The notes: generated by a model not told the origin, from the letters alone. DNA of 64,000 nucleotides from Halogeometricum sp. S1BR25-6 (GCF_031624495.1 NZ_JAMQOP010000001.1:248001-312000), one strand, 5' to 3'. Shown: positions 1 through 11,146, numbered from the stretch's first letter. Program-made: numbers and translations.

Positions 1-882
1 GTCGCTCCCGGTCCGCGGCGGGAGCCAGCAGGCCTGCCGCCCGACGGCCGCGAGACCGACCGGATTCCGCGTGTCCGCCAGTGCGGTCAGCACCTGTGCC
101 ATCCCCTCGCGGCCGCAGGCGACGGCGTGCGGTTCGTCCTCGTCGGCCGCGCGGTACGCCGAGGGGCGCGCGTCGAGACAGAGGACGACCGATGCGAGTC
201 GCTCTTCCCGGAACTCGATGGTGGTGAGTTCGCCCGTCTTCGCCCGCCGCCGCCAGTCGATGCGCGAGAGGGGGTCCCCGGAGCGGTACTCGCGCGTCTG
301 GTGGAACTCGGTGCCGGCGCCGCCCTCGTCGGTGACGACGGACCCGCTTCCGTGCATCGTCTGTTTCCGGAGGGGCACCTCGGGCACCGTCGCGGCGCAC
401 TCAATAGCGGTGTCCTCGCGGACGGTCGTCTCGACTTCGTGCGCGCCGGCCGCGTCGCGGACGATGGCCGTCGCGGGGTCGAACTGGTGGCGGCCGTGTT
501 CGGCGTGGACGGCGTAGGAGAACTCCGTCGTCGCGCCGGGACGCAGAAACGCCGCGTGCCGGGGCGTCCCCTCGCTCACGGTGAGCATCGGCGGGACGCC
601 GTCGACGAGGCGGAGGTCCGTCAGCGTCGAGGACCCGACGTTTCGAACTCGGACGGTCACACTCACGTCCTCGCCCGCCGCGGCGTCGCGCGGTTCGACC
701 GTCCGCGTCAGGTCGAGGTCGACCGACGGCGGCGAGGTGAGCCACGGGTACGCCGCGTACCCCGCGCCGACGGCGCCGAGGAGGAGGACGAGAGGGTCCT
801 TCGCGAGGAGGCCGACGGCCGTCGCGAACAGGGCGACGGCGACGACGCCGCGCCACCGGCGGGTCCGACGGACCGTCGTCAC
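1..882 (-). CDS. DUF58 domain protein (3' end beyond window)
   Basis: The reading frame starts with GTG at 882 and runs off the left edge, giving 294 visible residues. Two hydrophobic stretches lie at residues 12-42, followed by a beta-rich extracytoplasmic part. The DUF58 signature is seen near residue 200: YRSGDPLSRIDWRRRAKTG, followed by TIEFREER. DUF58 proteins usually sit beside MoxR-type AAA ATPases and are thought to act in assembly or maturation of surface or metal-binding proteins; that role is inferred. The GTG overlaps the stop of the upstream gene (GTGA), so it belongs to the operon 2338 to 1. It is too long to be seen as a closed ORF here because the stop is outside. Confidence 0.85.
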   Translation of the reverse strand, partial: MTTVRRTRRWRGVVAVALFATAVGLLAKDPLVLLLGAVGAGYAAYPWLTSPPSVDLDLTRTVEPRDAAAGEDVSVTVRVRNVGSSTLTDLRLVDGVPPMLTVSEGTPRHAAFLRPGATTEFSYAVHAEHGRHQFDPATAIVRDAAGAHEVETTVREDTAIECAATVPEVPLRKQTMHGSGSVVTDEGGAGTEFHQTREYRSGDPLSRIDWRRRAKTGELTTIEFREERLASVVLCLDARPSAYRAADEDEPHAVACGREGMAQVLTALADTRNPVGLAAVGRQACWLPPRTGSD

Positions 883-1523
883 CGCCGGCCCCCGTCGGTC
901 GCGGCTCTCGGTCCGTCTTCGGGGCCGCTCCGTTCGTCCGCGGCGCCTTCGATTCGACACACCTCGTCCGCCGCGCGCTCGGCCCCCCGCCGGAACCCCG
1001 GCCCCGAGAACGGACCGAGCAGGCGGTCGGTCAGCGACGTCCGTCCGTTCTCGGCGAGGAACGCGGCCGCCGCGTCGTCGTCGGTCCAGTCCCCGGCGTC
1101 GACGCGCGTCGCCGCCCGTTCGCGCGCGACGCCGTCGCGGTACATCACCGACCGGACCGCGGCCTCGCGGACCCGTTCGCGGACGGCTTCTCGCTCCCCG
1201 CCGCGGCCGACCCGGTTCCGCGACTCGCCTCCGACCGCGCGGTCGAACTTGACGCCGGGGTGCGCGGCGTTCTGGACGGTCTCCGGTTCGGGCGGCGTCG
1301 TCCGATTCACGCCGTCGGCGCCGCGGAGGACGAGAACGGCGACGACGACCAGCAGGGCCACCGACGCGACGCCCGCCGCGAGCACGTAGTCGTTGCCGGC
1401 GAGTGCAACGAGCGCCGCCGCCGCGTCGTCGGGGGCGCCGTTCGGAAGCGCGACGAGTGCGAGCGCACCCGCCGCTCCGACGGCGCCGAGCGTCCCGACG
1501 AGGAGCCGTCCCGCGCGACTCAC
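879..1523 (-). CDS. Small two-helix membrane protein of the DUF4129-DUF58 operon
   Basis: I chose the GTG at 1523 because it overlaps the TGA of the DUF4129 gene (GTGA), and the preceding in-frame sequence is only a shadow of that gene. The 214-residue product has two membrane helices (about residues 5-27 and 40-62), then a cytosolic charged helical part with the pattern REAVRERVREAAVRSV and a conserved-looking AFLAENGR segment. Haloarchaeal DUF4129 and DUF58 genes commonly bracket a protein of this size. Its function is unknown. Stop overlaps the start of the DUF58 gene, so translational coupling is likely. Confidence 0.75.
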   Translation of the reverse strand: MSRAGRLLVGTLGAVGAAGALALVALPNGAPDDAAAALVALAGNDYVLAAGVASVALLVVVAVLVLRGADGVNRTTPPEPETVQNAAHPGVKFDRAVGGESRNRVGRGGEREAVRERVREAAVRSVMYRDGVARERAATRVDAGDWTDDDAAAAFLAENGRTSLTDRLLGPFSGPGFRRGAERAADEVCRIEGAADERSGPEDGPRAATDGGRR

Positions 1524-2338
1524 CGTCCCAGTCCTCCCGGCGTTCGACTCTCCTCGAACTGCGAGAGGCCCTCCTCCATCCGTCGGACGCGTTCGTCCGT
1601 CACCTCGCGTCCGCCGTACCTGACCTCCTCGAAGACCCGTCTGAGGCGCTCGACGCCCTCGGGGTCGAAGCCGCTCTCGACGGCGGCGGAGGCGCACTCT
1701 TCGGGGGTTCGCCGCCACGGGTCCTCCACGTCGGCCGCGGCGAGGACGGATACCCACGCGCGTTCGACGGCGTTCTGCGGTTCGAGTTCCGGCGCGCCGG
1801 TCGGTCCCCGTGGGTCGGCGTCGCCTCCGAGGCGTCGAACGAGTCCGTCGCCGTAGCGCGCCAACAGCACCGCGACGCCGAGCAGGACCGCCAGCGCGAC
1901 GAACAGCGGGAGGAACGTCTCTAGGAAGTCGATAAAGACGTCGAGCCACTCCTGCGCCGGTTCGGTGACCTGCGAGTCGTCGGACTGCGACTGGGATTGA
2001 GATTGAGATTGAGACTGCGATTGAGACTGCGACTGCGATTGTGACTGGGATTGCGATTGGGACTGCGACTGTCGCTCCTCCTCGGATGCGTCGACGCGAG
2101 GTTGCGCCTCGCCGTCGCCGTCCACCGACCGCTGGACCGCCGCTTCAGACCCTTGGCCGGTCATCGCGCGCTTGAGGTCGCCCGCGGTGTCGGGGCTGAT
2201 GGGGACGGTGTCGTAGTCGAGGTCGACCACCTCGTCGGGGTTGGTCGACAGCGACGTTTCGAGCGTCGTCGACGCGACGCCGACCGATGCGATACAGGAC
2301 AGAACGACGAGAACGGCTGCGACTGTGCGTAGGTTCAT
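1520..2338 (-). CDS. DUF4129 domain protein with (QS)n linker
   Basis: 272 residues. Residues 1-22 form a signal peptide (MNLRTVAAVLVVLSCIASVGVAS). An acidic exported part follows, then an uninterrupted run of about 15 Gln-Ser pairs (residues about 89-118). One membrane helix (about 139-160) and the cytosolic DUF4129 domain come next, with the typical ERAWVSVLAAADVEDPWRRTP and YGGREVT motifs. DUF4129 is found with transglutaminase-like, MoxR and DUF58 genes in exopolymer or surface maturation loci, so a cell-surface role is inferred. First gene of a tightly overlapping three-gene operon. The hexanucleotide tract encoding the QS run lies at 1983-2072. Confidence 0.85.
   Translation of the reverse strand: MNLRTVAAVLVVLSCIASVGVASTTLETSLSTNPDEVVDLDYDTVPISPDTAGDLKRAMTGQGSEAAVQRSVDGDGEAQPRVDASEEERQSQSQSQSQSQSQSQSQSQSQSQSQSQSQSDDSQVTEPAQEWLDVFIDFLETFLPLFVALAVLLGVAVLLARYGDGLVRRLGGDADPRGPTGAPELEPQNAVERAWVSVLAAADVEDPWRRTPEECASAAVESGFDPEGVERLRRVFEEVRYGGREVTDERVRRMEEGLSQFEESRTPGGLGR
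1983..2072. repeat. Hexanucleotide tandem repeat encoding (QS)15
   Basis: Fifteen consecutive 6-bp units of the type GAYTGN (mostly GACTGC, GATTGA, GACTGG) encode Gln-Ser dipeptides on the minus strand. The third codon positions vary between units, which suggests some age or selection on the dipeptide rather than a fresh microsatellite expansion. Confidence 0.9.
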
Positions 2339-2649
2339 CTCTCGGGGTGCGCGGTGGCGGTGACGGCTCGCGGCCGACGGGGCGTCTGCGTCTCCGAGGC
2401 CCGGGTCCCGCCGTCCGCGAATGCTGATTTCGCGTGGATAGCCGACTCGCGCGTCCGCGGTAAGGCACTTGTGACGCTTCCAGCTGAAACGCTCGCGTTA
2501 GCCGCCGCTTAGCGTGAAACCGTCCGAAACTGTTCGGACCGGCTAGAGGGGAGCGCGGCGCGGAGAGCGACCCCGCGGACCGCGCGCCGGTCGGCGGTGG
2601 CACGTCGTGACACGTCCGACTTTTTAGCCCCGCGCTCGTCGCCCCCTGT
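2339..2649. promoter_or_regulatory. Divergent promoter region, DUF4129 operon / mgtE pair
   Basis: This 311-bp gap separates two divergent operons and holds no ORF that I trust. For the plus-strand genes a T-rich box (ACTTTTTAGCC, about 2619-2629) lies some 25 bases before the ATG at 2650, the spacing expected for a leaderless haloarchaeal transcript. No clear TATA box was picked out for the minus operon. Confidence 0.5.
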
Positions 2650-3231
2650 ATGACCATCCGCGACGCGGCCGTGGAGGCGTACCGCGAAGCCCTCCCGGCA
2701 CTCGTCGCGAGCCTCGTCGGGGGTCTCATCGCCGGCGTCGTTCTGACGGGGATGCGCGCCGAACTCCGCGAGGTGCCCGGACTGCTCGTTCTCGTTCCCG
2801 CTCTCCTCGCCACGCGCGGGAACGTCTACGGATCGCTCGGCGCGCGCATCGCCACCGCCCTCCACCAGGGGCTTATCGAACCCCGCGTCACCGCCGGGGA
2901 CCGTCGCCTGCGCGCCGCCGCGGCCGCGGCGCTCGGAAACGGCCTCCTCGCCTCCGCGTTCGCCGCCGTCGCCGCCTTCCTCGTGCTCACGGTGCTCGGC
3001 GCACAGGTCGCGCCCGTCGGCGTCCTCGTCGCCATCGCCGTCCTCGCGGGTCTCTTATCCGGAGTCGTCCTCGTCGCCGTCGTCGTCAGCGTCGTCTTCG
3101 CGGGCTACCGCCGCGGGCACAACCCCGACACGCTCGTCGGCCCCATCGTGACGACGACGGGCGACGTGTTCGGCGTCCTCTTCCTGCTCGTCGCCGTTCG
3201 CACCGTTCTCGCCGTCGTGGAGGTGCTCTGA
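2650..3231 (+). CDS. MgtE-type divalent cation transporter, membrane-domain protein 1
   Basis: 193 residues of almost pure membrane domain. The pattern PGLLVLVPALLATRGNVYGSLGARIATALHQG matches the signature loop of the MgtE/SLC41 transmembrane domain, followed by four further helices and the PIVTTTGDVFGV motif that contributes acidic residues to the ion path. The cytosolic N and CBS domains of bacterial MgtE are absent. Stop and the next GTG are adjacent (TGAGTG), so this and the following gene are made together and probably form one heteromeric transporter. Magnesium is the likely substrate; cobalt or other divalent ions cannot be excluded. Confidence 0.85.
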   Translation: MTIRDAAVEAYREALPALVASLVGGLIAGVVLTGMRAELREVPGLLVLVPALLATRGNVYGSLGARIATALHQGLIEPRVTAGDRRLRAAAAAALGNGLLASAFAAVAAFLVLTVLGAQVAPVGVLVAIAVLAGLLSGVVLVAVVVSVVFAGYRRGHNPDTLVGPIVTTTGDVFGVLFLLVAVRTVLAVVEVL

Positions 3232-3789
3232 GTGGCCACCGAGTGGACCGTCCGCGACATCACGCGGGCGATGCTGCCCGTCCTCCTGGCGCTGACGCTC
3301 GTGGAACTCGGGAGCGGACTCGTCCTCGGGAGCTTCGAGTCCCAACTGTACCGATACCCGACGCTCCTCGCCCTCGTTCCCGTCACCATCGGCACCGCTG
3401 GAAATCTGGGGAGTATCCTCGCGGCGCGGCTCTCAACCGCATTCCACCTCGGGACGCTCTCGTTCGACCCGACGGACGAGGAACTCGCGGGCAACGCCCT
3501 CGCCACCGTCGCCCTCTCGGTCACCGTCTTCCCCGTCGTCGGCGTGGGCGCGTGGCTCCTCACCTCGTTGGTCGGGGGGACGGCGCTCCCCGTCCGGACC
3601 GTGCTCACGGTGTCGCTCGCCTCGGGCGTCGTCCTCGCCGTCCTCGCCGTCGTCGTCACGCTGGCGGCGACGTACGCGGCCTACCGGTTCGAACTCGACC
3701 CCGACGACGTGGTCATCCCGCTGGTGACGAACTCCTGCGACGTGCTCGGCGTCCTGGTGCTGTTCGCGTCGATACAGGTGTTCGTGTAG
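3232..3789 (+). CDS. MgtE-type divalent cation transporter, membrane-domain protein 2
   Basis: 185 residues, GTG start directly after the stop of the preceding paralogue. Signature loop YPTLLALVPVTIGTAGNLGSILAARLST is closer to canonical MgtE than in the partner, and PLVTNSCDVLGV supplies the second conserved acidic motif. About five membrane helices, no cytosolic regulatory domains. The two genes look like an ancient internal duplication, as seen in SLC41-type proteins where two MgtE domains are fused in one chain. A heterodimer is the simplest model. No promoter of its own is visible. Confidence 0.85.
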   Translation: MATEWTVRDITRAMLPVLLALTLVELGSGLVLGSFESQLYRYPTLLALVPVTIGTAGNLGSILAARLSTAFHLGTLSFDPTDEELAGNALATVALSVTVFPVVGVGAWLLTSLVGGTALPVRTVLTVSLASGVVLAVLAVVVTLAATYAAYRFELDPDDVVIPLVTNSCDVLGVLVLFASIQVFV

Positions 3790-3842
3790 CTCGTTTCGTC
3801 AGTATTCGAAATTGGACTATCACGCGAGCACAGCTGTCTCGG

Positions 3843-3850
3843 GGTTTATT
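3843..3850 (+). promoter_or_regulatory. TATA element of the subtilase gene
   Basis: GTTTATTA lies about 27 bases before the GTG start at 3876, fitting a leaderless transcript. Confidence 0.5.
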
Positions 3851-3875
3851 ATTCGTGGAATAACCACGTGGTAAC

Positions 3876-5229
3876 GTGTCACAAAAGATAGATACGGGGC
3901 GGCTCGACAGGCGTGGCGCGCTCAAGGCCAGCGGTTCGCTCTTCGCCGGACTCGCGGTCGGGAGCGTTCCGACCGCGGCGACGGACGACGGTCGGTTCCT
4001 GCTGAAACCGAAATCGAACGCCGGACTCGGCGGACTGACCGTCGAGGAAGAGCTCCCGGCGCTCGAGTACGTCGCGGTCAGCGGTTCGGAGCGGGAGGCG
4101 AAGAAGCGGTCCACGGCCTACGTGCCGGACCCGACGCTGGAACCGACGCGTCCGACCGTCGAGACGCCCTCACTGCGGGGGGCGGTCGAGGCGCGGGACG
4201 AACCGCTCCTACGACCTCCAGTGGGACAAACAGGACCTCGACGTGCCGGAGGCGCAGAACGTGACGCGCGGCGAAGGCGTCCGCGTCTCCGTCGTCGACT
4301 CCGGCATCGCGGCGGACCACCCCGACATAGACGGCGTGAACCTCGACCTCTCGAAGAACTTCAGCGGCGACGGTCTCGGCGTCGGCGGCCCGTACGGCGG
4401 CTACCACGGCACCCACGTCTCCGGTATCGTCGCCGCGACGGACACGAACGACCTCGGCGTCGTCGGCACCGCGCCGGGCGCCGAGTTGGTCGACTGCCGC
4501 GTCTTCTCGCACGGGGGCGGGGCGCCCTTCTCGGTGGTCCTCGCCGCGCTCCTCCACAACGTCGAGGTGGACTCGGACGTGACCAACGTGAGCCTCGGCG
4601 CGTACTCGCCGCGGAGCGACTACGTGGACGACGGACGGTTCGGACGCTTCTACGGGCGACTCCTCAACCGCACGCTGACACACGCCAAGCGGGAGGGAAC
4701 GCTGGTCGTAATGTCGGCGGGGAACAGCGGCGCCGACCTGCAGCGCGACAAGCGGTGGCTCAGCCTGCCGAACGAGGGCGCACAGGGTCTCAGCGTCGCC
4801 GCAACCGGCCCCGTCGGGTTCGGGTGGGGCGCGGAGGGGAGGCGGGAACCGTACCGGAGTCCGGCGTTCTACACGAACTACGGAACGAACGCCATCGACC
4901 TCGCGGCGCCCGGCGGCGACGCCGACCGGTCGACCATCGGAACCGGCGTCCCGTGGCACCGCGACCTGGTCTTGAGCACCGTGGCGACGTTCGAACGGGG
5001 CGCGGACGGCGAGATAACCGGCGACCCCACCTACGGATGGGACTGGGCCGCCGGCACCTCGATGGCGGCGCCGAACGTCTCCGGGGCCGCCGCGTTGGTG
5101 CAGGCGAACAACCCCGAGTTCGGCCCGGAACGGGTGGAATCGGCGCTCACACGGGCCGCGGAGGTGCCAGAGGGATACGACAAGTCCTACTACGGATCCG
5201 GCTATCTGAACGTCGTCGACGCCCTGTGA
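3876..5229 (+). pseudogene. Tat-exported subtilisin-like serine protease (S8), frameshifted
   Basis: The first frame (GTG 3876) encodes a Tat signal (LDRRGALKASGS, then a hydrophobic stretch) and the start of the propeptide. The catalytic domain continues in another frame, open by about 4186 and running to the stop at 5229. The catalytic triad is intact: Asp in SVVDSG (codon 4297), His in YHGTHVSG (codon 4405), Ser in GTSMAAP (codon 5059). Codon phase moves from 0 to +1, equal to one extra base, and a run of six G at about 4178-4183 is a good candidate site. Everything else looks functional, so this is either a very recent pseudogene or a sequencing error. Halolysin-like extracellular proteases are the nearest family I recognise. 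Confidence 0.8.
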
Positions 5230-5247
5230 CCGCGCCGCGTCCGCCGG

Positions 5248-5622
5248 TTACCCCGACGCGTAGAAGTAGCCGGCGACGAGGGCGACGACGGCTTCGGCGA
5301 CTTTCGAGGCGATGGCCATCGGATTCGTCGGCCCGCCCATGGCGACGTAGGCGACGATTGTCAGGACGGCGTAGCCGGCGGCGACGAGGTGAAGCGCGCG
5401 CCGCCAGTAGCGGGTGAAAAACAGGCCGACGCCGACGAGCCACCCCAGCGCGTTCAGGTAGAACAAAACGCCCGTCGTCGGGTCGAACCCCATGACCGTC
5501 GGGGCGAGGTACAGGTGGATGACCGCGGAGACGAGGGCGGCGACGACGCCGAGGTACGCGAGGTTGTTCGATGGAAGGCTCAACAGCGAGGACCCGGAGG
5601 CGGCAGTCGATTGACTGGCCAT
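5248..5622 (-). CDS. Small four-helix membrane protein
   Basis: 124 residues if it begins at the ATG at 5622 (MASQSTAASG), preferred because the nine residues before it have no conserved look. Four predicted membrane helices cover most of the chain, with the pattern LAYLGVVAALVSAVIHLYLAPTVMGFDP in the first and GPTNPMAIASKVAEAVVA near the end. It resembles small haloarchaeal membrane proteins of unknown function. It is convergent with the subtilase gene, with only 18 bases between stops. Confidence 0.75.
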   Translation of the reverse strand: MASQSTAASGSSLLSLPSNNLAYLGVVAALVSAVIHLYLAPTVMGFDPTTGVLFYLNALGWLVGVGLFFTRYWRRALHLVAAGYAVLTIVAYVAMGGPTNPMAIASKVAEAVVALVAGYFYASG

Positions 5623-5777
5623 ACTCCCAGTAGCGCGGCCGGGGTGCAAATACCTTGACAGATTCGCCGCCGTTGGTAGTTCCGCTCTCTCTAGGGTTTG
5701 CTCGTCTCCCGTCCTCGCCCGTCCGTCGTCGGACGCCGACCGACGCCGATTAGGCCCGGCGTTCCCTACCGTCGTCC

Positions 5778-6173
5778 GTGCAGTCTGCCGGCTTCTTCGC
5801 CGAACTCTGGCCCGTCGCCGTCGAGGTTGCTCCCCGCGTCGCCCGCATCTCGGTACTGATCGCCGTCCCCAGAACTCGGAGAGTTCTGGGCTCGGAAATC
5901 GCTACGCGATTTCCGACCGTCGGCGTCTTCGTCGCCAACCTCGCCGTCGGGTTCGGCCTCGTCCGGTACGTCGCGGGCCTCTCGAAGTACCTCACCCGGC
6001 CCGCCAACCTCCCGGACGAAGCGGGAACGGCGATTATAACGACCGCTGCCTCCCCGACCGCAGGCTACGGCATGCTCGCGGAGTTCCGCGAGTCCGGGTG
6101 ACTGGACGACACCGCCACCCTCGTCGCCGTCACGATAAACACGTTTTTCGGCTTCGTCCAGCACATCTTCACC
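5778..6173 (+). pseudogene. Nucleoside-recognition (Gate) membrane protein, 5' fragment
   Basis: The frame from a GTG at 5778 matches the first about 120 residues of the intact copy at 6606-7622 (LANLAVGFGLV, PANLPDE, AASxTAGYGMLAEFRESG, VTINTFFGFVQHIFT). Damage seen: a 54-bp in-frame insertion of two hairpins at 5864-5920, a TGA at 6099-6101 in place of a Thr codon, and loss of similarity right after the Thr codon at 6171-6173. The missing 3' half is found at 9079-9735, so the gene was split by the intervening 2.9 kb. Confidence 0.85.
5868..5915. repeat. Twin 10-3-10 hairpins inserted in a coding frame
   Basis: Hairpin 1 has arms CCCAGAACTC (5868-5877) and GAGTTCTGGG (5881-5890) with loop GGA. 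Hairpin 2 has arms CGGAAATCGC (5893-5902) and GCGATTTCCG (5906-5915) with loop TAC. Both have perfect 10-bp stems and 3-base loops and are absent from the intact paralogue at the equivalent place, where a single Phe codon stands. Confidence 0.85.
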
Positions 6174-6508
6174 CCATTTAGAGCGATGTCCTCTATCTTG
6201 ATGTTCACCACTTCACTGCATCTCATACCGAACTTGAGCAGCAGGACTACCGCTTGGTCCCTCATGTGGTAGATACCGTCGACCGCCTCTCGCACCTCTT
6301 CGACGGGAATTTTCGGCGGATCCGGTGGTGGGACGTCGTAGGTTCGACTTGGTGAGCGCCAGCTCAAACGAGTTGAGCTCGTTGTACTTAGCAGGGAGCG
6401 ACGGCTCTGCCTGCCAGTATCGTATATCCGGTTGAGATAGCGGAACTTAGTCTTGACAGTCTCTGCAGAATTCGACTGTCCTCCGGACTGGTCGCGTGTA
6501 ACAGTCAC
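6173..6508 (-). pseudogene. Tyrosine recombinase (integrase) relic
   Basis: Minus-strand frames encode parts of a haloarchaeal XerC-like integrase. An N-terminal core-binding piece (KFRYLNRIYD, then YWQAEPSLPAKYN in a shifted frame) is followed by IPVEEVREAVDGIYHMRDQAVVLLLKFGMRCSEVVNIKIEDIAL, where MRDQAVVLLLxxGMRxSE is the typical first catalytic box containing the first Arg. At least two frameshifts lie around 6340-6430. All sequence beyond about 6175, including the rest of the catalytic domain with the Tyr nucleophile, is missing at the junction with the broken Gate gene. It is the probable remains of the enzyme that brought the island. Confidence 0.75.
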
Positions 6509-6605
6509 GGGATGAATTCACGAGCCTGTGACTCGTTTGGACGGGCAGGATGACGGTAGCCGACGATCCACCACCGATGGTCATTTGCTTACTCACCCTC
6601 GAATA

Positions 6606-7622
6606 ATGACTGTGGCTTCCGTGGTCGTCGCACTCCAGTCACAGCCGAGCGCGCTCCTCCCAGTCGTGGCCGAGGTGCTTCCCCGAGTCGCGCGGATAGC
6701 GCTGTTCATCGCCTTCGGAGTGTTCCTCGCGAACCTCGCCGTCGGGTTCGGTCTGGTTGAGCGAGTCGCTGGACTCTCGCGCTTTCTCACCGGTCCCGCA
6801 AATCTCCCGGACGAAGTCGGAACGGCCATCCTCACAACGGCTGCCTCCACGACTGCAGGCTACGGGATGCTTGCCGAGTTCCGCGAATCGGGGACGCTAG
6901 ACGACAAAGCGACGCTCGTAGCCGTCACCATCAACACGTTCTTCGGCTTTGTGCAGCACATTTTCACGTTTTACCTGCCAGTTCTTCTTCCGATACTCGG
7001 CCTTCGAGTGGGACTCCTGTATGTCGGCTCGCGGGCGCTCGTCGCTCTCTGTATCACGTTCACTGGCGTCTTCGCCGGAGCACTACTGCTCTCTCCCGCG
7101 AACGTCGACCAGTCAACGACCACCGCGGCCGACGGCGGCGCACAGGAGAGGGGTTCCGACACTCCCCGAGAGGTCGTCCACAACGCTTGGGACCGCACGC
7201 TCCCGAAGCTCCGGCGTATCGTTCCCCGGCTCGCCGTCGTCTATACTCTCGTCGTCGTCCTCACCCGGACAACGGATCTGACGGCGCTCACCGAGGTCGC
7301 GGATCCGCTCGCGACTATCGTCGGACTCCCGGGTGCGGCGATTCCTGTCATCGCCGTCTTCGCGCTGGACACCACGGCTGGAGCCGCGACCATCGCTCCG
7401 CTGGTCGGGGTGGACTTCACCGCTCGGCAGGCCGTGGCAACGATGCTCATCGGTGGTATCGTCTCTTTCGCGGTTTCAACGTTCAAGCGGTCCATTCCAT
7501 TCCAGTACGGTATTTGGGGCCCCCGCTTTGGGTCCAAAGTAGTCGCCGTCAATACGGCGCTGAAGATAGTGTGGATTGGAGCAGCGGTCGCTACTCTATT
7601 ATGGATACCCTCTCCGCTATGA
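6606..7622 (+). CDS. Nucleoside-recognition (Gate) domain membrane protein, intact copy
   Basis: 338 residues from the ATG at 6606. Two Gate-type membrane domains are seen: residues about 25-160 (GVFLANLAVGFGLV, PANLPDEVGTAILTTAAST, NTFFGFVQHIFTFYLPVLLPILG) and about 200-335 (LPGAAIPVIAVFALDTTAGAATIAPLVG, MLIGGIVSFAVSTFKRSIPFQYGIWGPRFG). Gate domains occur in nucleoside transporters and spore maturation proteins, so membrane passage of a small molecule is likely but the substrate is unknown. Codon use has more A/T at third positions than the split copy around it, consistent with import. It lies inside the 2.9-kb insert and probably replaces the function of the broken resident gene. Confidence 0.85.
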   Translation: MTVASVVVALQSQPSALLPVVAEVLPRVARIALFIAFGVFLANLAVGFGLVERVAGLSRFLTGPANLPDEVGTAILTTAASTTAGYGMLAEFRESGTLDDKATLVAVTINTFFGFVQHIFTFYLPVLLPILGLRVGLLYVGSRALVALCITFTGVFAGALLLSPANVDQSTTTAADGGAQERGSDTPREVVHNAWDRTLPKLRRIVPRLAVVYTLVVVLTRTTDLTALTEVADPLATIVGLPGAAIPVIAVFALDTTAGAATIAPLVGVDFTARQAVATMLIGGIVSFAVSTFKRSIPFQYGIWGPRFGSKVVAVNTALKIVWIGAAVATLLWIPSPL

Positions 7623-7635
7623 ACTCAATCGCTCT

Positions 7636-7652
7636 CCAGCTACCGTAGCTGG
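7636..7652. terminator. Palindrome just after the intact Gate gene
   Basis: Arms CCAGCTAC (7636-7643) and GTAGCTGG (7645-7652) follow the stop by 13 bases. A second small palindrome ACTCTTTAGAGT lies at 7672-7683. They may help end transcription; no long T-run follows. Confidence 0.35.
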
Positions 7653-7696
7653 TACACACCGTGTCTGCTGAACTCTTTAGAGTGTGATAGAAATAG

Positions 7697-7728
7697 CGTG
7701 CTGAATACAGAGGGGTGAGTTCAGCACG
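7697..7728. repeat. 9-bp inverted repeat, possible insertion-sequence end
   Basis: Arms CGTGCTGAA (7697-7705) and TTCAGCACG (7720-7728) enclose 14 bases. A related half GCTGAACTC sits at 7667-7675. The surrounding 7623-7864 segment is less GC-rich than the rest of the window and holds no gene that I can support. Confidence 0.5.
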
Positions 7729-7864
7729 GCTTCGACAAACGATCAGCAACCGAAGGATTCAACGGAGTCTCGAAAATCAGACCGTCGCCCGATAGTACGT
7801 GGATAGGCCGTCTTGCCCTCGCTCGGTCCGCCGACGCTTCTCGACGAGACCAACGTCGTTCGAG

Positions 7865-8090
7865 ATGAACCGCCGTGGGGCGCTGAAATCGCTCGCTACG
7901 GCGGGCCTCCTCGTCGGTGAGCCTTCGACGCCGAGACGACCACGACGGTCTGACTACGTCTTCGTATCGCGGCCGGGAACGACAGTGATTCGGAACGAGA
8001 GCGGTTTCTATTCGTCGACGAACGCCGTGTCGAAGTGTTCCACCCGACTATCACGCCATAATCCGCCCGTCTTCATCGCGGTCCCCGCTC
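7865..8090 (+). pseudogene. Relic of a Tat-exported protein
   Basis: An ATG at 7865 opens MNRRGALKSLATAGLLVG, a good Tat signal start. After it the frame loses any protein-like character; the neighbouring frame reads AFDAETTTTV, stop, then LRLRIAAGNDSDSERERFLFVDE, which looks like the mature part of a secreted protein. A frameshift plus stop codons therefore broke the gene. It points towards the convergent Hcp gene. The family is not recognised. Confidence 0.4.
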
Positions 8091-8104
8091 CCGACGGGTA
8101 CGCA

Positions 8105-8716
8105 CTAGGTCGGTCTGTTCGCCCTCACGTCCCACCCGAAGGTGTACTCCTGGACATTCCCATCGCCGTTCAGCATCCGGTATTCCACTCTTACCTTACC
8201 GAACGACAGTGAGTAGCTCTCTATCGGTCCAGCGTCGACCATGCCGTTGTTGTCGAACGTGAGGACCTCGACGTCCTCTAGTGTCACGGTGTAGACGTCG
8301 GCTTCGGGACCGTCAGTCGCTCGCGTGAGCGAGAGCACCGCCTCGGGGCGGTGTGCACCCGTCACGGCCAGTTCCAGCAACTGCGGTGTCGCCCTGTCGA
8401 TGCCCTTCGTGAGGACCAGCGAGTCGAATTGGGCAGCGCCCGTCGCCCGTCCTGTGCCGCGACTGCTCGCTCTCGATACACCCCAGCTGAACGAGAGTAC
8501 CTCGATCTCGTTTTCGTGGCCCGCGGTCTGCGATTCGCCCTGGATATCAGGGATCTTCAGATACAGTCCGGATGGGGGGGTCCCGGATTGTAACGCCCCT
8601 GTAGCCACGCTGTCACGGTTGTGGGCACCCAGTGGGAACCCTCCCACTCCCCCGGCTATCGATCCGGCCGCCATACCGCCCATAAAATGTCTCCGACTTG
8701 TCAAGAATTCGTCCAT
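8105..8716 (-). CDS. Tat-exported Hcp-family (type VI tube-like) protein
   Basis: 203 residues. The N-terminus has a Tat signal (SRRHFMGGMAAGSIAGGVGG). The mature part matches Hcp along its whole length: GLYLKIPDIQGES near residue 50, EIEVLSFSWGVS, LTKGIDRATPQLLELAVTG, a beta hairpin with VTLEDVEVLTF, ESYSLSFGKVRVEY and FGWDVRANR at the end. Bacterial Hcp forms the hexameric tube of type VI secretion systems and is not made with a Tat signal. No sheath, baseplate or VgrG gene is visible here, so this is a lone exported Hcp fold of unknown role. A TATA element lies near 8737-8747, about 25 bases upstream, so the transcript is probably leaderless. Part of the island. Confidence 0.85.
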   Translation of the reverse strand: MDEFLTSRRHFMGGMAAGSIAGGVGGFPLGAHNRDSVATGALQSGTPPSGLYLKIPDIQGESQTAGHENEIEVLSFSWGVSRASSRGTGRATGAAQFDSLVLTKGIDRATPQLLELAVTGAHRPEAVLSLTRATDGPEADVYTVTLEDVEVLTFDNNGMVDAGPIESYSLSFGKVRVEYRMLNGDGNVQEYTFGWDVRANRPT

Positions 8717-9078
8717 CGCCTACTGTACGTTACCAATTAACATATAGCTTGCTAGCCCCCTATACGGACGGATCCGTCGAACGACGGACGTCCACGCCGA
8801 CGAAAATTCTGGCGTATTCGGCGTGGAGTGAATGCCGACAGTAACACCACGTCCTGTCGAAGCGAGTCCTACTACCCCGTACAAGAACCCAAACGTGGAT
8901 GGCGTCGGTATTCGATCGTTTCTCGTACGTGACAGGACCTTGCCACTTCGCCCAAGTGAAAGATTCGCGCGCTGTATTCAGTACAGCCTCAAAAATATAT
9001 CTGCTTATGAGGCCTCGGCGGAACCGCTATGACCCGTCTGACTTCTCTCAGAATTCAATTGTAGATTCCAGTTCTACC
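8717..9078. other. Gene-poor right arm of the island
   Basis: This 362-bp stretch contains the leaderless promoter of the Hcp gene (TTAACATATAG region, 8736-8750) and an A/T-rich box TCAAAAATATATC at 8989-9001 followed by short open frames that resemble nothing known. It ends at the junction with the 3' part of the split Gate gene (CTACC|TTCTACGCG, 9078/9079). Confidence 0.5.
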
Positions 9079-9735
9079 TTCTACGCGCCCGTGCTGATTC
9101 CCATCCTCGGCCTCCTGTACGTCGGCGCCCGCGCGGCCGTCTCGCTGGCCATCACGCTCACCGGCGTCCTCGCAGGCGCGGTGTTGCTGTCGGAGGGGCG
9201 TGTTCGCTCCTCGTCCGCCGCCGAGGTGGACACGACGGACGCCGCGGAGACCGACGGCGGCGCGGCCGCCTTCGACGACGGCCCGGGGACGACTCGCGGC
9301 GTCGTCCGCGAGGCGGCCGAGAAGACGTGGCCGAAACTGACCCGCCTCGTCCCGCGTCTGGCCGTCGTCTACCTCCTCGTTACCCTCCTCGTGGAGACGG
9401 TGAATCTCCGCGAGTTCACCGCCGTCGCCGAACCCCTCACGACGCTCCTCGGTCTGCCCGGCGCGGCGGTGCCCGTCATCGCCGTGCTCGCCTTCGACAC
9501 CACCGTCGGCGCGGCGACCATCGCGCCCCTCGTCGGCGAGGCGTTCACCCCGCGGACCGCGGTGGCGACGATGCTCGTCGGCGGCATCGTCTCCTTCGCC
9601 GTCTCGACGTTCAAACGCTCCATTCCGTTTCAGTACGGCATCTGGGGGGCGCGCTTCGGGTCGAAGGTCGTCGCGTCAACACGGCGCTGAAAGTCGTCTT
9701 CATCGGAGTCGCGCTGGTCGTCCTGCTCGCACCTA
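9079..9735 (+). pseudogene. Nucleoside-recognition (Gate) membrane protein, 3' fragment
   Basis: This part starts exactly where the 5' fragment at 5778-6173 ends. FYAPVLIPILG corresponds to FYLPVLLPILG of the intact copy and the match continues to FKRSIPFQYGIWGARFGSKVV. It lacks three residues (RVG) after ILGL. A one-base loss at about 9672 shifts the frame; the last 20 residues (VNTALKVVFIGVALVVLL) follow in the next phase. Codon third positions are strongly GC, like the 5' fragment and unlike the copy between them. No start codon of its own belongs to this gene; the open frame only runs back into island DNA by chance. Confidence 0.85.
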
Positions 9736-9774
9736 AAGTGAGTATATCTCCGCGTCGCTCGTATCTCGACGCCC

Positions 9775-9990
9775 ATGACAGAGATTCGACGCTGTCCCGA
9801 CTGCGGCGTGACGATGGAGTCGATGAAACTACAGACCGCCGAGGGCTTCTCGCTGCATCTCGTGACGAACGAGCGGAAGAAGGGGTTCCTCGGCGGATTC
9901 GGTCTGAGGGAGAAACTCGAACCGACCGCGTACGTCTGTCCGGAGTGCGGGTTGATTCGCTCGTACGCCGAACGCGACGAGTCGGAGTGA
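9775..9990 (+). CDS. Small double zinc-knuckle protein
   Basis: 71 residues with CPDCG at residues 8-12 and CPECG at about 54-58, making one zinc ribbon with a 45-residue insertion (HLVTNERKKGFLGGFGLREKLEP). Such proteins are common in haloarchaea and have no firm function. A TATA-like GAGTATATC lies at about 9739-9748, some 27 bases upstream of the ATG, supporting a leaderless transcript. Confidence 0.8.
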   Translation: MTEIRRCPDCGVTMESMKLQTAEGFSLHLVTNERKKGFLGGFGLREKLEPTAYVCPECGLIRSYAERDESE

Positions 9991-10005
9991 ATCGCTCCTT
10001 CGCCG

Positions 10006-10425
10006 CTACTCGCGTTCGTCGGGCCGGACTGGTTTACCGTCTTCCGTCGGCGGCGCGACGTGATCGACGAACTCGTCAATGCTCGGGTTCTCGACGGTGA
10101 CGTGCACCTCGATGTCGCCCAGTTCGTCGGGGTTGCCGACGGAGAAGTTGACGACGCCCTTGAACGCCGCCTGCTTTTTCAGCGCGAAGGAGAAGCCCGA
10201 CTCGTCGCCGCGCTTGGTGAACTCCCGCCGGGCCGTGTCGAGGATGGCCTGTTCGTGCAGTTTCTCGGAGAACTGTTCGAGCGAGTGCGTCTCGCCGACT
10301 ATCCGGCCGGCCTCTCGTTCGAACTCCACGTTCGGGAAGATGTTGCGAACGGCGTCCTCGACGCGGTCGGTCACCTCCGTGTCGCGCACCGGGACGACGA
10401 TGCGCGCGTGAGCGCTGTAGATCAC
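10006..10425 (-). CDS. UPF0201 family RNA-binding-like protein
   Basis: 139 residues from a GTG at 10425 whose first bases overlap the TGA of the UPF0200 gene. The chain has the UPF0201 layout: VVVPVRDTEVTDRVEDAVRNIFPNVEFE at the start, then GETHSLEQFSEKLHEQAILDTAR and GFSFALKKQAAFKGVVNF. The family has a ribosomal-protein-L5-like fold and is related to exosome-linked archaeal proteins, so RNA binding is assumed. Coupled to the UPF0200 kinase, a pairing seen in many archaea. Confidence 0.85.
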   Translation of the reverse strand: MIYSAHARIVVPVRDTEVTDRVEDAVRNIFPNVEFEREAGRIVGETHSLEQFSEKLHEQAILDTARREFTKRGDESGFSFALKKQAAFKGVVNFSVGNPDELGDIEVHVTVENPSIDEFVDHVAPPTEDGKPVRPDERE

Positions 10426-11042
10426 GTCCGACCCTCCGCTTCGGTCTCGACTCCGGCCTCACCGCCGTCCGCGTCGCCGGTGTCCGACCCCTTCTCGCTT
10501 CTATCCTCTTCGAGAAGTGCGCGGATTCGCTCGCGGAACCGTTCGAGCGAGTCGGTGTTGTCGACGACGACGTCCGCGCGGTCCATCACCTCGCCCATGC
10601 CGAAGCCGAGTTCGCGCTCCTCCCGGTCGCGCAGGGCCTCGCGGTCCACGTCGCTGTCGTCGCGGCCGCGGTCCGAGAGGCGTTCGGCGCGGACCTCGAA
10701 CGGCGCTTCGACGCTCACGAGGACGAACGCCTCCCCGAACGCCTCGCGAAATCGGTCGAGTTCGTGCTCCGAGCGGAGGCCGTCGACGAGCACCACGTCG
10801 CTCGATTCGAGTTCCACCTCGACGAGCGGTAGCGAGCGCTCGGCGATGGCGGCCGGCCCCTCCTCCTCGCGGAGCGCCGTCGCTATCTCACCGTGGTGCT
10901 CGGCGGGTTCGAGGCCCCGCTCCCGGCACTCCGAGCGAATCACGTCGCCCATGGTCACGACCGGGACCCCGGCGTCTCGGGCGACCGACGCGGCCTCTCC
11001 CTTCCCGCTTCCGGGGAGTCCGACGGTTCCGATGACCTTCAT
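10422..11042 (-). CDS. UPF0200 P-loop kinase (dephospho-CoA kinase-like)
   Basis: 206 residues from the ATG at 11042 (MKVIGTVGLPGSGKGE). The Walker A motif GLPGSGKGE at residues 8-16 and VVLVDGLRSEHELDRFREAF (Walker B region) place it in the UPF0200 family, close to dephospho-CoA and adenylate kinases. Longer upstream frame exists but the M before KVIGTVG is the standard family start. The last 30 residues are an acidic tail. The phosphoryl acceptor is not known. Confidence 0.85.
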   Translation of the reverse strand: MKVIGTVGLPGSGKGEAASVARDAGVPVVTMGDVIRSECRERGLEPAEHHGEIATALREEEGPAAIAERSLPLVEVELESSDVVLVDGLRSEHELDRFREAFGEAFVLVSVEAPFEVRAERLSDRGRDDSDVDREALRDREERELGFGMGEVMDRADVVVDNTDSLERFRERIRALLEEDRSEKGSDTGDADGGEAGVETEAEGRT

Positions 11043-11146
11043 CGTCGCTCGTTTCTCGTCTGCCGGACTTAGGGCTGCCGTTCGTTCCGTCTCGCGTTTC
11101 GCCGCGGTCCCACCGTCTCGGGGCTTCGGCCGACCGTCCGACGCTA

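What the first reader, a model, noticed from the sequence alone, without database searches (positions are those of the whole stretch)
5778..9735. Resident Gate-protein gene split by 2.9 kb that carries a complete paralogue of itself
The 5' fragment ends at a Thr codon (6171-6173) and the 3' fragment resumes at the next Phe codon (9079), so joining them restores the gene. The DNA between contains an integrase relic, an intact homologue with a different codon bias, and an Hcp-like gene. A mobile segment that lands inside a gene and brings its own replacement copy is the pattern known for some integrative elements that restore their target. Here the replacement is a whole diverged gene.
Basis: partly seen in the sequence, partly recalled or inferred. 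Interest (0 to 1): 0.65.

Follow-up and report, generated by a model that had tools for sequence, protein, structure and literature searches.

The report
Gene displaced by foreign copy inside
In this salt-loving archaeon (Halogeometricum), a membrane-protein gene was cut in two by 2.9 kb of foreign DNA that carries an intact version of the same gene from another genus, so the old gene died and the foreign one is the only copy left; this is a known kind of gene replacement, caught with the old gene's remains still in place.

Summary
A congener (G004) has the uninterrupted Gate gene, co-linear with window 1-6173 and 9076-11083 at 89-90% identity. Window 6174-9075 (2902 bp) is therefore an insertion, between Thr and Phe codons, with a 3-bp repeat (ACC) and no host base lost. 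Both fragments are one gene (about 95% identical to G004). The intact copy is not a paralogue but a xenologue: it nests with Halobium, Salinigranum and Haloquadratum J07HQW1, and its lineage is under purifying selection. The resident is dead (stop, frameshift, indels), but only recently.

The 'mobile element bringing its own replacement' reading is not supported. The integrase is a multiply broken relic without its catalytic half. The 3-bp repeat is below any reported archaeal att site. No terminal repeats were found, and no other genome searched carries the block. The insert's dead parts look older than the split, so it probably arrived as already decayed foreign DNA.

Best reading: xenologous gene displacement in situ, by capture of a foreign fragment inside its own homologue. 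Congener G001, sharing an early palindromic insertion, has lost the gene altogether; J07HQW1 has the same foreign clade in its native locus. The joining mechanism is unproven.

The parts
5778..6173 (+). 5' piece of the resident Gate pseudogene
   Evidence: co-linear with G004 and 82/85 aa identical; in-frame TGA at 6102
5868..5916 (.). double-palindrome insertion (two hairpins, 54 bp with the flanking CCGTC repeat) inside the resident gene; also present at the same place in congener G001
   Evidence: alignment with G004, G002, G003, G011; G001
6171..6173 (+). left copy of the 3-bp repeat ACC
   Evidence: single copy in G004
6174..9075 (.). 2902-bp insert
   Evidence: absent from G004, G002, G003 and G011
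6174..6556 (-). relic of a haloarchaeal tyrosine integrase, cut at the left junction; no N-terminus, no catalytic C-terminal half, several frame changes and stops
6606..7622 (+). intact foreign Gate gene (xenologue), 338 aa
   Evidence: Pfam PF07670; tree with Halobium, Salinigranum and J07HQW1; dN/dS 0.11-0.13
7661..9029 (.). decayed element with IS6-like left end (about 7661-7728) and right end (about 8955-9029); limits approximate
   Evidence: end families aligned
7780..7860 (-). relic of a winged-helix protein gene
   Evidence: two similar places in the own genome and plasmid genes at 80-86% identity
8105..8716 (-). open gene for an Hcp-like protein with a twin-arginine type N-terminus
   Evidence: Pfam PF05638 E 7e-33; TAT_signal_seq E 0.017, just under its cut-off
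9076..9078 (+). right copy of the 3-bp repeat ACC
9079..9735 (+). 3' piece of the resident Gate pseudogene (12-bp deletion near 9111, 1-bp deletion near 9674, stop codon lost)
   Evidence: 187/198 aa identical to G004

Best explanation
Xenologous gene displacement in situ, caught unfinished. A fragment of foreign haloarchaeal DNA, already holding a dead integrase piece, a decayed IS6-like element with an Hcp-like passenger, and a complete Gate gene from a Halobium/Salinigranum-like lineage, was captured inside the resident Gate gene between the Thr and Phe codons, leaving a 3-bp ACC repeat. The resident, which probably already carried a small palindromic insertion, gathered further lesions and is a pseudogene. 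The foreign gene is the only intact copy left and presumably does its job. Shown: the insertion, the foreign origin of the intact copy, the death of the resident, purifying selection on the intact gene's lineage. Inferred: that the block arrived in one piece, that it was already decayed, that homology between incoming and resident Gate genes guided it, and that the final joins were illegitimate rather than site-specific.
For: Empty site in G004 and exact junctions. Tree: resident sister to G004 in Halogeometricum, intact copy in the Halobium/Salinigranum/J07HQW1 clade, SH-aLRT 99 each. dN/dS 0.11-0.13 for the intact copy against relatives. The resident branch has 16 synonymous to 7 non-synonymous changes, close to G004's 13 to 5, so it decayed late, while the integrase piece in the insert is far more decayed. 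Low GC and GC3 of the insert. Gate-to-Gate DNA similarity of 79% over 256 bp is available for pairing. G001 has the same palindrome and no Gate gene left. J07HQW1 has the foreign clade in its native locus, whereas J07HQW2 has another clade there.
Against: No hybrid Gate junction is seen, so guidance by homology has no direct trace. Nothing shows that all parts of the insert came together; no donor with the same order was found. Expression and function of the foreign gene are untested. Some decay of the insert could have happened after arrival.
Confidence: 0.7

Rival explanations
1. One reading: an integrative element targets the Gate gene and carries a whole replacement copy, so the host keeps the function; its integrase later decayed.
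For: An integrase piece lies at the left junction, cut exactly there; the target is preserved without base loss; landing inside its own homologue by chance is only about 1 kb in 4.5 Mb.
Against: 3-bp repeat only, against 8-60 bp for archaeal att sites; the host side of both junctions matches G004 without decay; no C-terminal integrase half at the right end, as a split (suicidal) integrase would leave; no terminal inverted repeats; no second copy of the block and no other split Gate gene seen in the family search; the integrase is much more decayed than the resident gene.
Confidence: 0.1
2. Two steps: other DNA (integrase relic, IS6-like element) first split the resident gene, and the foreign Gate gene entered the island later, perhaps selected because the function was lost.
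For: The insert is a mosaic of parts with different histories; the palindrome shared with G001 suggests that the gene was damaged early in this group.
Against: The resident decayed only late on its branch; a later arrival landing exactly between the two halves needs a second coincidence, and homologous recombination with the halves would more easily have repaired the gene.
Confidence: 0.17
3. Assembly artefact: a contaminating or misjoined contig piece.
For: Draft genome in 9 contigs, contamination estimate 4.8%; reads not available here.
Against: The locus lies well inside a large contig (C1:254174-257075), there is no long repeat at the junctions to cause a misjoin, and the resident carries independent lesions that fit a gene that is really dead.
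Confidence: 0.03

Closest known systems
Xenologous gene displacement in situ (Omelchenko et al. 2003, cited in PMC5867893 and PMC1274311)
   Same: A horizontally acquired orthologue takes the place of the ancestral gene at the same chromosomal position; the ancestral gene is lost.
   Different: Here the ancestral gene is not overwritten: its two halves still flank the foreign gene, and unrelated passenger DNA came along or accumulated.
Integrative elements in protein-coding genes that restore their target (for example NitEve-E2 of Nitrososphaera, PMC6563490)
   Same: Foreign DNA inside a protein-coding gene, proven by an empty site; an intact version of the gene product can still be encoded.
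   Different: Those use the 3' end of the gene, att repeats of 8 bp or more, and supply only a short replacement end. Here the site is in the middle of the gene, the repeat is 3 bp, and a complete separate gene is present.
SSV-type (suicidal) integrase elements (PMC8371274)
   Same: An integrase gene is broken at the edge of the inserted DNA.
   Different: No second integrase half at the other edge, no 40-50 bp att repeat.
Archaeal IS6-type elements and transposase-free derivatives (ISH14 group, MITEHarch3; PMC6807381)
   Same: Ends inside the insert align with a family of ends beginning GGCTCTGTTGAAA repeated in this genome; the one sister pair scanned with Pfam holds no transposase.
   Different: About 1.37 kb with an Hcp-like passenger; it does not span the 2.9-kb insert, so it did not cause the insertion as such.

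Membership tests
Xenologous gene displacement in situ | the new gene groups outside the host's genus in a tree while the old one groups inside it | tested here: met
   (quick tree; SH-aLRT 99 for both groups)
Xenologous gene displacement in situ | same chromosomal position as the native gene in relatives | tested here: met
Xenologous gene displacement in situ | the native gene is lost or inactive | tested here: met
   stop, frameshift, indels and split
Xenologous gene displacement in situ | the new gene provides the function | not testable with these tools
   open frame and dN/dS of 0.11-0.13 only
Site-specific integrative element | functional integrase encoded in the insert | tested here: not met
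   relic without catalytic half, several frame changes and stops
Site-specific integrative element | direct att repeats of at least about 8 bp | tested here: not met
   3 bp; yardstick from PMC8371274 and PMC6563490
Site-specific integrative element | further copies or occupied sites elsewhere | tested here: not met
   none beyond the Gate gene and short pieces in the own genome, 170 family genomes, plasmids, phages and viral contigs
DNA transposon (whole 2.9 kb) | terminal inverted repeats at 6174 and 9075 | tested here: not met
   repeat search found no inverted pair at the insert ends
IS6-type transposase-free element (7661-9029) | left and right ends of the family in facing orientation | tested here: met
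   naming the family IS6 rests on the GGCTCTGTTGAAA end, from own knowledge
IS6-type transposase-free element (7661-9029) | 8-bp target duplication | tested here: inconclusive
   ends are decayed and their limits uncertain; no clear duplication seen by eye

The most novel reading that the evidence does not exclude
The foreign Gate gene was carried by a (now dead) element family that uses Gate genes as its landing site and compensates with a full diverged copy: a whole-gene version of target restoration, which I did not find described in the papers read here.
Probability: 0.07. Interest if true: 0.65.

Novelty: new member of a known kind. Interest (0 to 1): 0.33.

Why it matters
Displacement of a gene by a foreign orthologue is common in haloarchaea but is usually inferred after the fact from trees. 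Here the old gene, the foreign gene and the passenger DNA are still side by side, with an empty site in a congener, so part of the order of events can be read. It also shows that a complete homologue inside a disrupted gene need not mean a target-restoring mobile element.

Tried and rejected
Suicidal-integrase split: rejected, no C-terminal half at the right end and no long att repeat. Transposition of the whole insert: rejected, no terminal inverted repeats. IS6-like element as vehicle of the whole block: its ends lie inside the insert. Campbell-type or one-sided homologous crossover: no hybrid Gate gene at either junction. True paralogue by duplication: rejected by the tree. Two fragments from different homologues: rejected, both are closest to G004. 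Related blocks in viral contigs, phages and plasmids: none (one distant Gate gene on a Natrinema plasmid, 53%). The careful tree did not finish in the time allowed; the quick tree is reported. A paper search for whole-gene replacement by islands found nothing close.

Full report
Check of the observation. The window belongs to a Halogeometricum genome: congener G003 has the 939,581-bp contig that genome contigs names H. limi, and the window is G000:C1:248001-312000. The Gate gene has three matches in the genome: one intact copy (6606-7622) and the two pieces. Congener G004 has the gene uninterrupted. Its locus aligns with window 1-6173 at 89.5% and with 9076-11083 at 90.5%, the two blocks meeting with an overlap of three bases. 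Base by base, G004 reads CATCTTCACCTTCTACGCG, and the window reads CATCTTCACC, then 2902 bp, then ACCTTCTACGCG. G002, G003 and the more distant G011 also have uninterrupted genes.

Same gene or different homologues? The 5' piece is identical to G004 at 82 of 85 residues and the 3' piece at 187 of 198, against 73/85 and 129/188 to the intact copy. In a tree of 111 proteins the joined resident is sister to G004 within Halogeometricum (SH-aLRT 99). The intact copy sits in a separate clade of seven with Halobium (G010), four genomes of one genus that I take for Salinigranum (g27; Salinigranum salinum of genome contigs has a close copy too) and Haloquadratum J07HQW1 (G132) (SH-aLRT 99, quick method because the careful run did not finish). 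The intact copy is therefore a xenologue, not a paralogue.

State of the two copies. The resident has an in-frame TGA at 6102 (CGA in G004), a 12-bp deletion near 9111, a 1-bp deletion near 9674, a lost stop codon, and a 54-bp double-palindrome insertion at about 5868-5916 with a 5-bp repeat CCGTC. The intact copy is open over its full length and shows dN/dS of 0.11-0.13 against its nearest relatives. Polarised with G002, the resident branch has 16 synonymous and 7 non-synonymous changes, much like G004's 13 and 5. From these small counts I estimate that the resident was unconstrained for at most about a quarter of its branch. It died late.

What is in the insert. (a) 6174 to about 6556, minus strand: a piece of a haloarchaeal tyrosine integrase, aligning to the middle part of 380-440-residue relatives, with several frame changes and stops, no N-terminus and no catalytic half, cut exactly at the left junction. 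(b) The Gate xenologue. (c) About 7661-9029: a pair of ends, one of left type and one of right type, of an IS6-like family. The core motif GTGCTGAATANAGAG occurs 36 times in the genome (one mismatch allowed) against 0 for the reversed control, and well-kept ends begin GGCTCTGTTGAAA. Inside lie a winged-helix relic and the Hcp-like gene. The one sister pair scanned with Pfam holds no transposase. Calling it IS6-type rests on the terminal sequence (own knowledge) and on the archaeal IS6 table of PMC6807381; no transposase was found to confirm it. (d) A short right end of unknown origin. Outside the Gate gene only short pieces matched anything in the own genome, 170 family genomes, plasmids, phages or viral contigs.

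How it most likely arose. The integrase is far more decayed than the resident gene, which was under constraint until late. The simplest reading is that the insert came in as already decayed foreign DNA, so the integrase in it did not do the joining. This fits the 3-bp repeat: archaeal att sites are usually given as 40-60 bp, at the shortest 8 bp (PMC8371274, PMC6563490), and the host sides of both junctions match G004 without decay. No terminal inverted repeats mark the 2902 bp. A match of three or more bases at a random join has a probability of about 5% (own estimate), so the repeat is weak evidence for any mechanism. Landing in its own homologue by chance is about 1 kb in 4.5 Mb for a single event, less striking over many transferred genes and genomes. 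I therefore favour capture guided by the Gate homology (79% over 256 bp) with illegitimate final joins; no hybrid junction proves it, and a two-step origin remains open.

The wider locus. Congener G001 has the same palindrome at the same position, keeps only the first part of the gene, and has about 5.4 kb of other genes (HTH_10/BAT regulators among them) up to the zinc-ribbon gene. It has no Gate match by protein search. By neighbouring sequence, G004 and the window are mostly slightly closer to each other than to G001, so the palindrome was either lost in G004 or moved by recombination. The gene was thus already in trouble in this group and is dispensable in at least one member. Haloquadratum J07HQW1 has a member of the foreign clade in its native locus beside the RNA-binding and thermosome genes, whereas J07HQW2 has a Halobellus-like gene there. 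That is a second displacement involving the same clade.

Known or new. Xenologous gene displacement is described as the most frequent outcome of gene transfer in haloarchaea (PMC5867893), and displacement in situ is an established idea (Omelchenko et al. 2003, cited). This case is an unusually legible member of that kind. The nested geometry is uncommon. The claim of a target-restoring element fails the tests that could be made here.

Noticed in passing
8105-8716 (minus); L226, L227: Hcp-like (T6SS_HCP) proteins with twin-arginine type N-termini occur in only 3 of 391 class-level genomes searched (window genome, G010, G391); all three read S/R-R-x-F near the start. Stand-alone exported Hcp-like proteins in haloarchaea look rare and unexplained.
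   Followed up: partly
7661-9029; loci L181-L209: Family of transposase-free elements with IS6-like ends (36 motif hits in the genome), several in facing pairs 460-770 bp apart; the window copy appears to carry a passenger gene.
   Followed up: partly
L225:4700-10301 (G001): Congener G001 has lost the Gate gene: the first part with the same palindromic insertion is followed by about 5.4 kb of other DNA with HTH_10/BAT regulator genes.
   Followed up: partly
5868-5916: Double palindrome with a 5-bp flanking repeat, at the same site in two congeners but with inverted hairpin loops between them; one further partial copy in the genome (C2:473324).
   Followed up: partly
L004 (Haloquadratum J07HQW1): The native Gate gene appears replaced by the same foreign clade, in its native locus.
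   Followed up: partly
3876-5229: Subtilase gene looks frameshifted: a twin-arginine type N-terminus in one frame (from 3876) and the S8 domain in another (from 4243).
   Followed up: no
1520-2338 (minus): Predicted membrane protein with a long Gln-Ser dipeptide run, probably variable in length.
   Followed up: no
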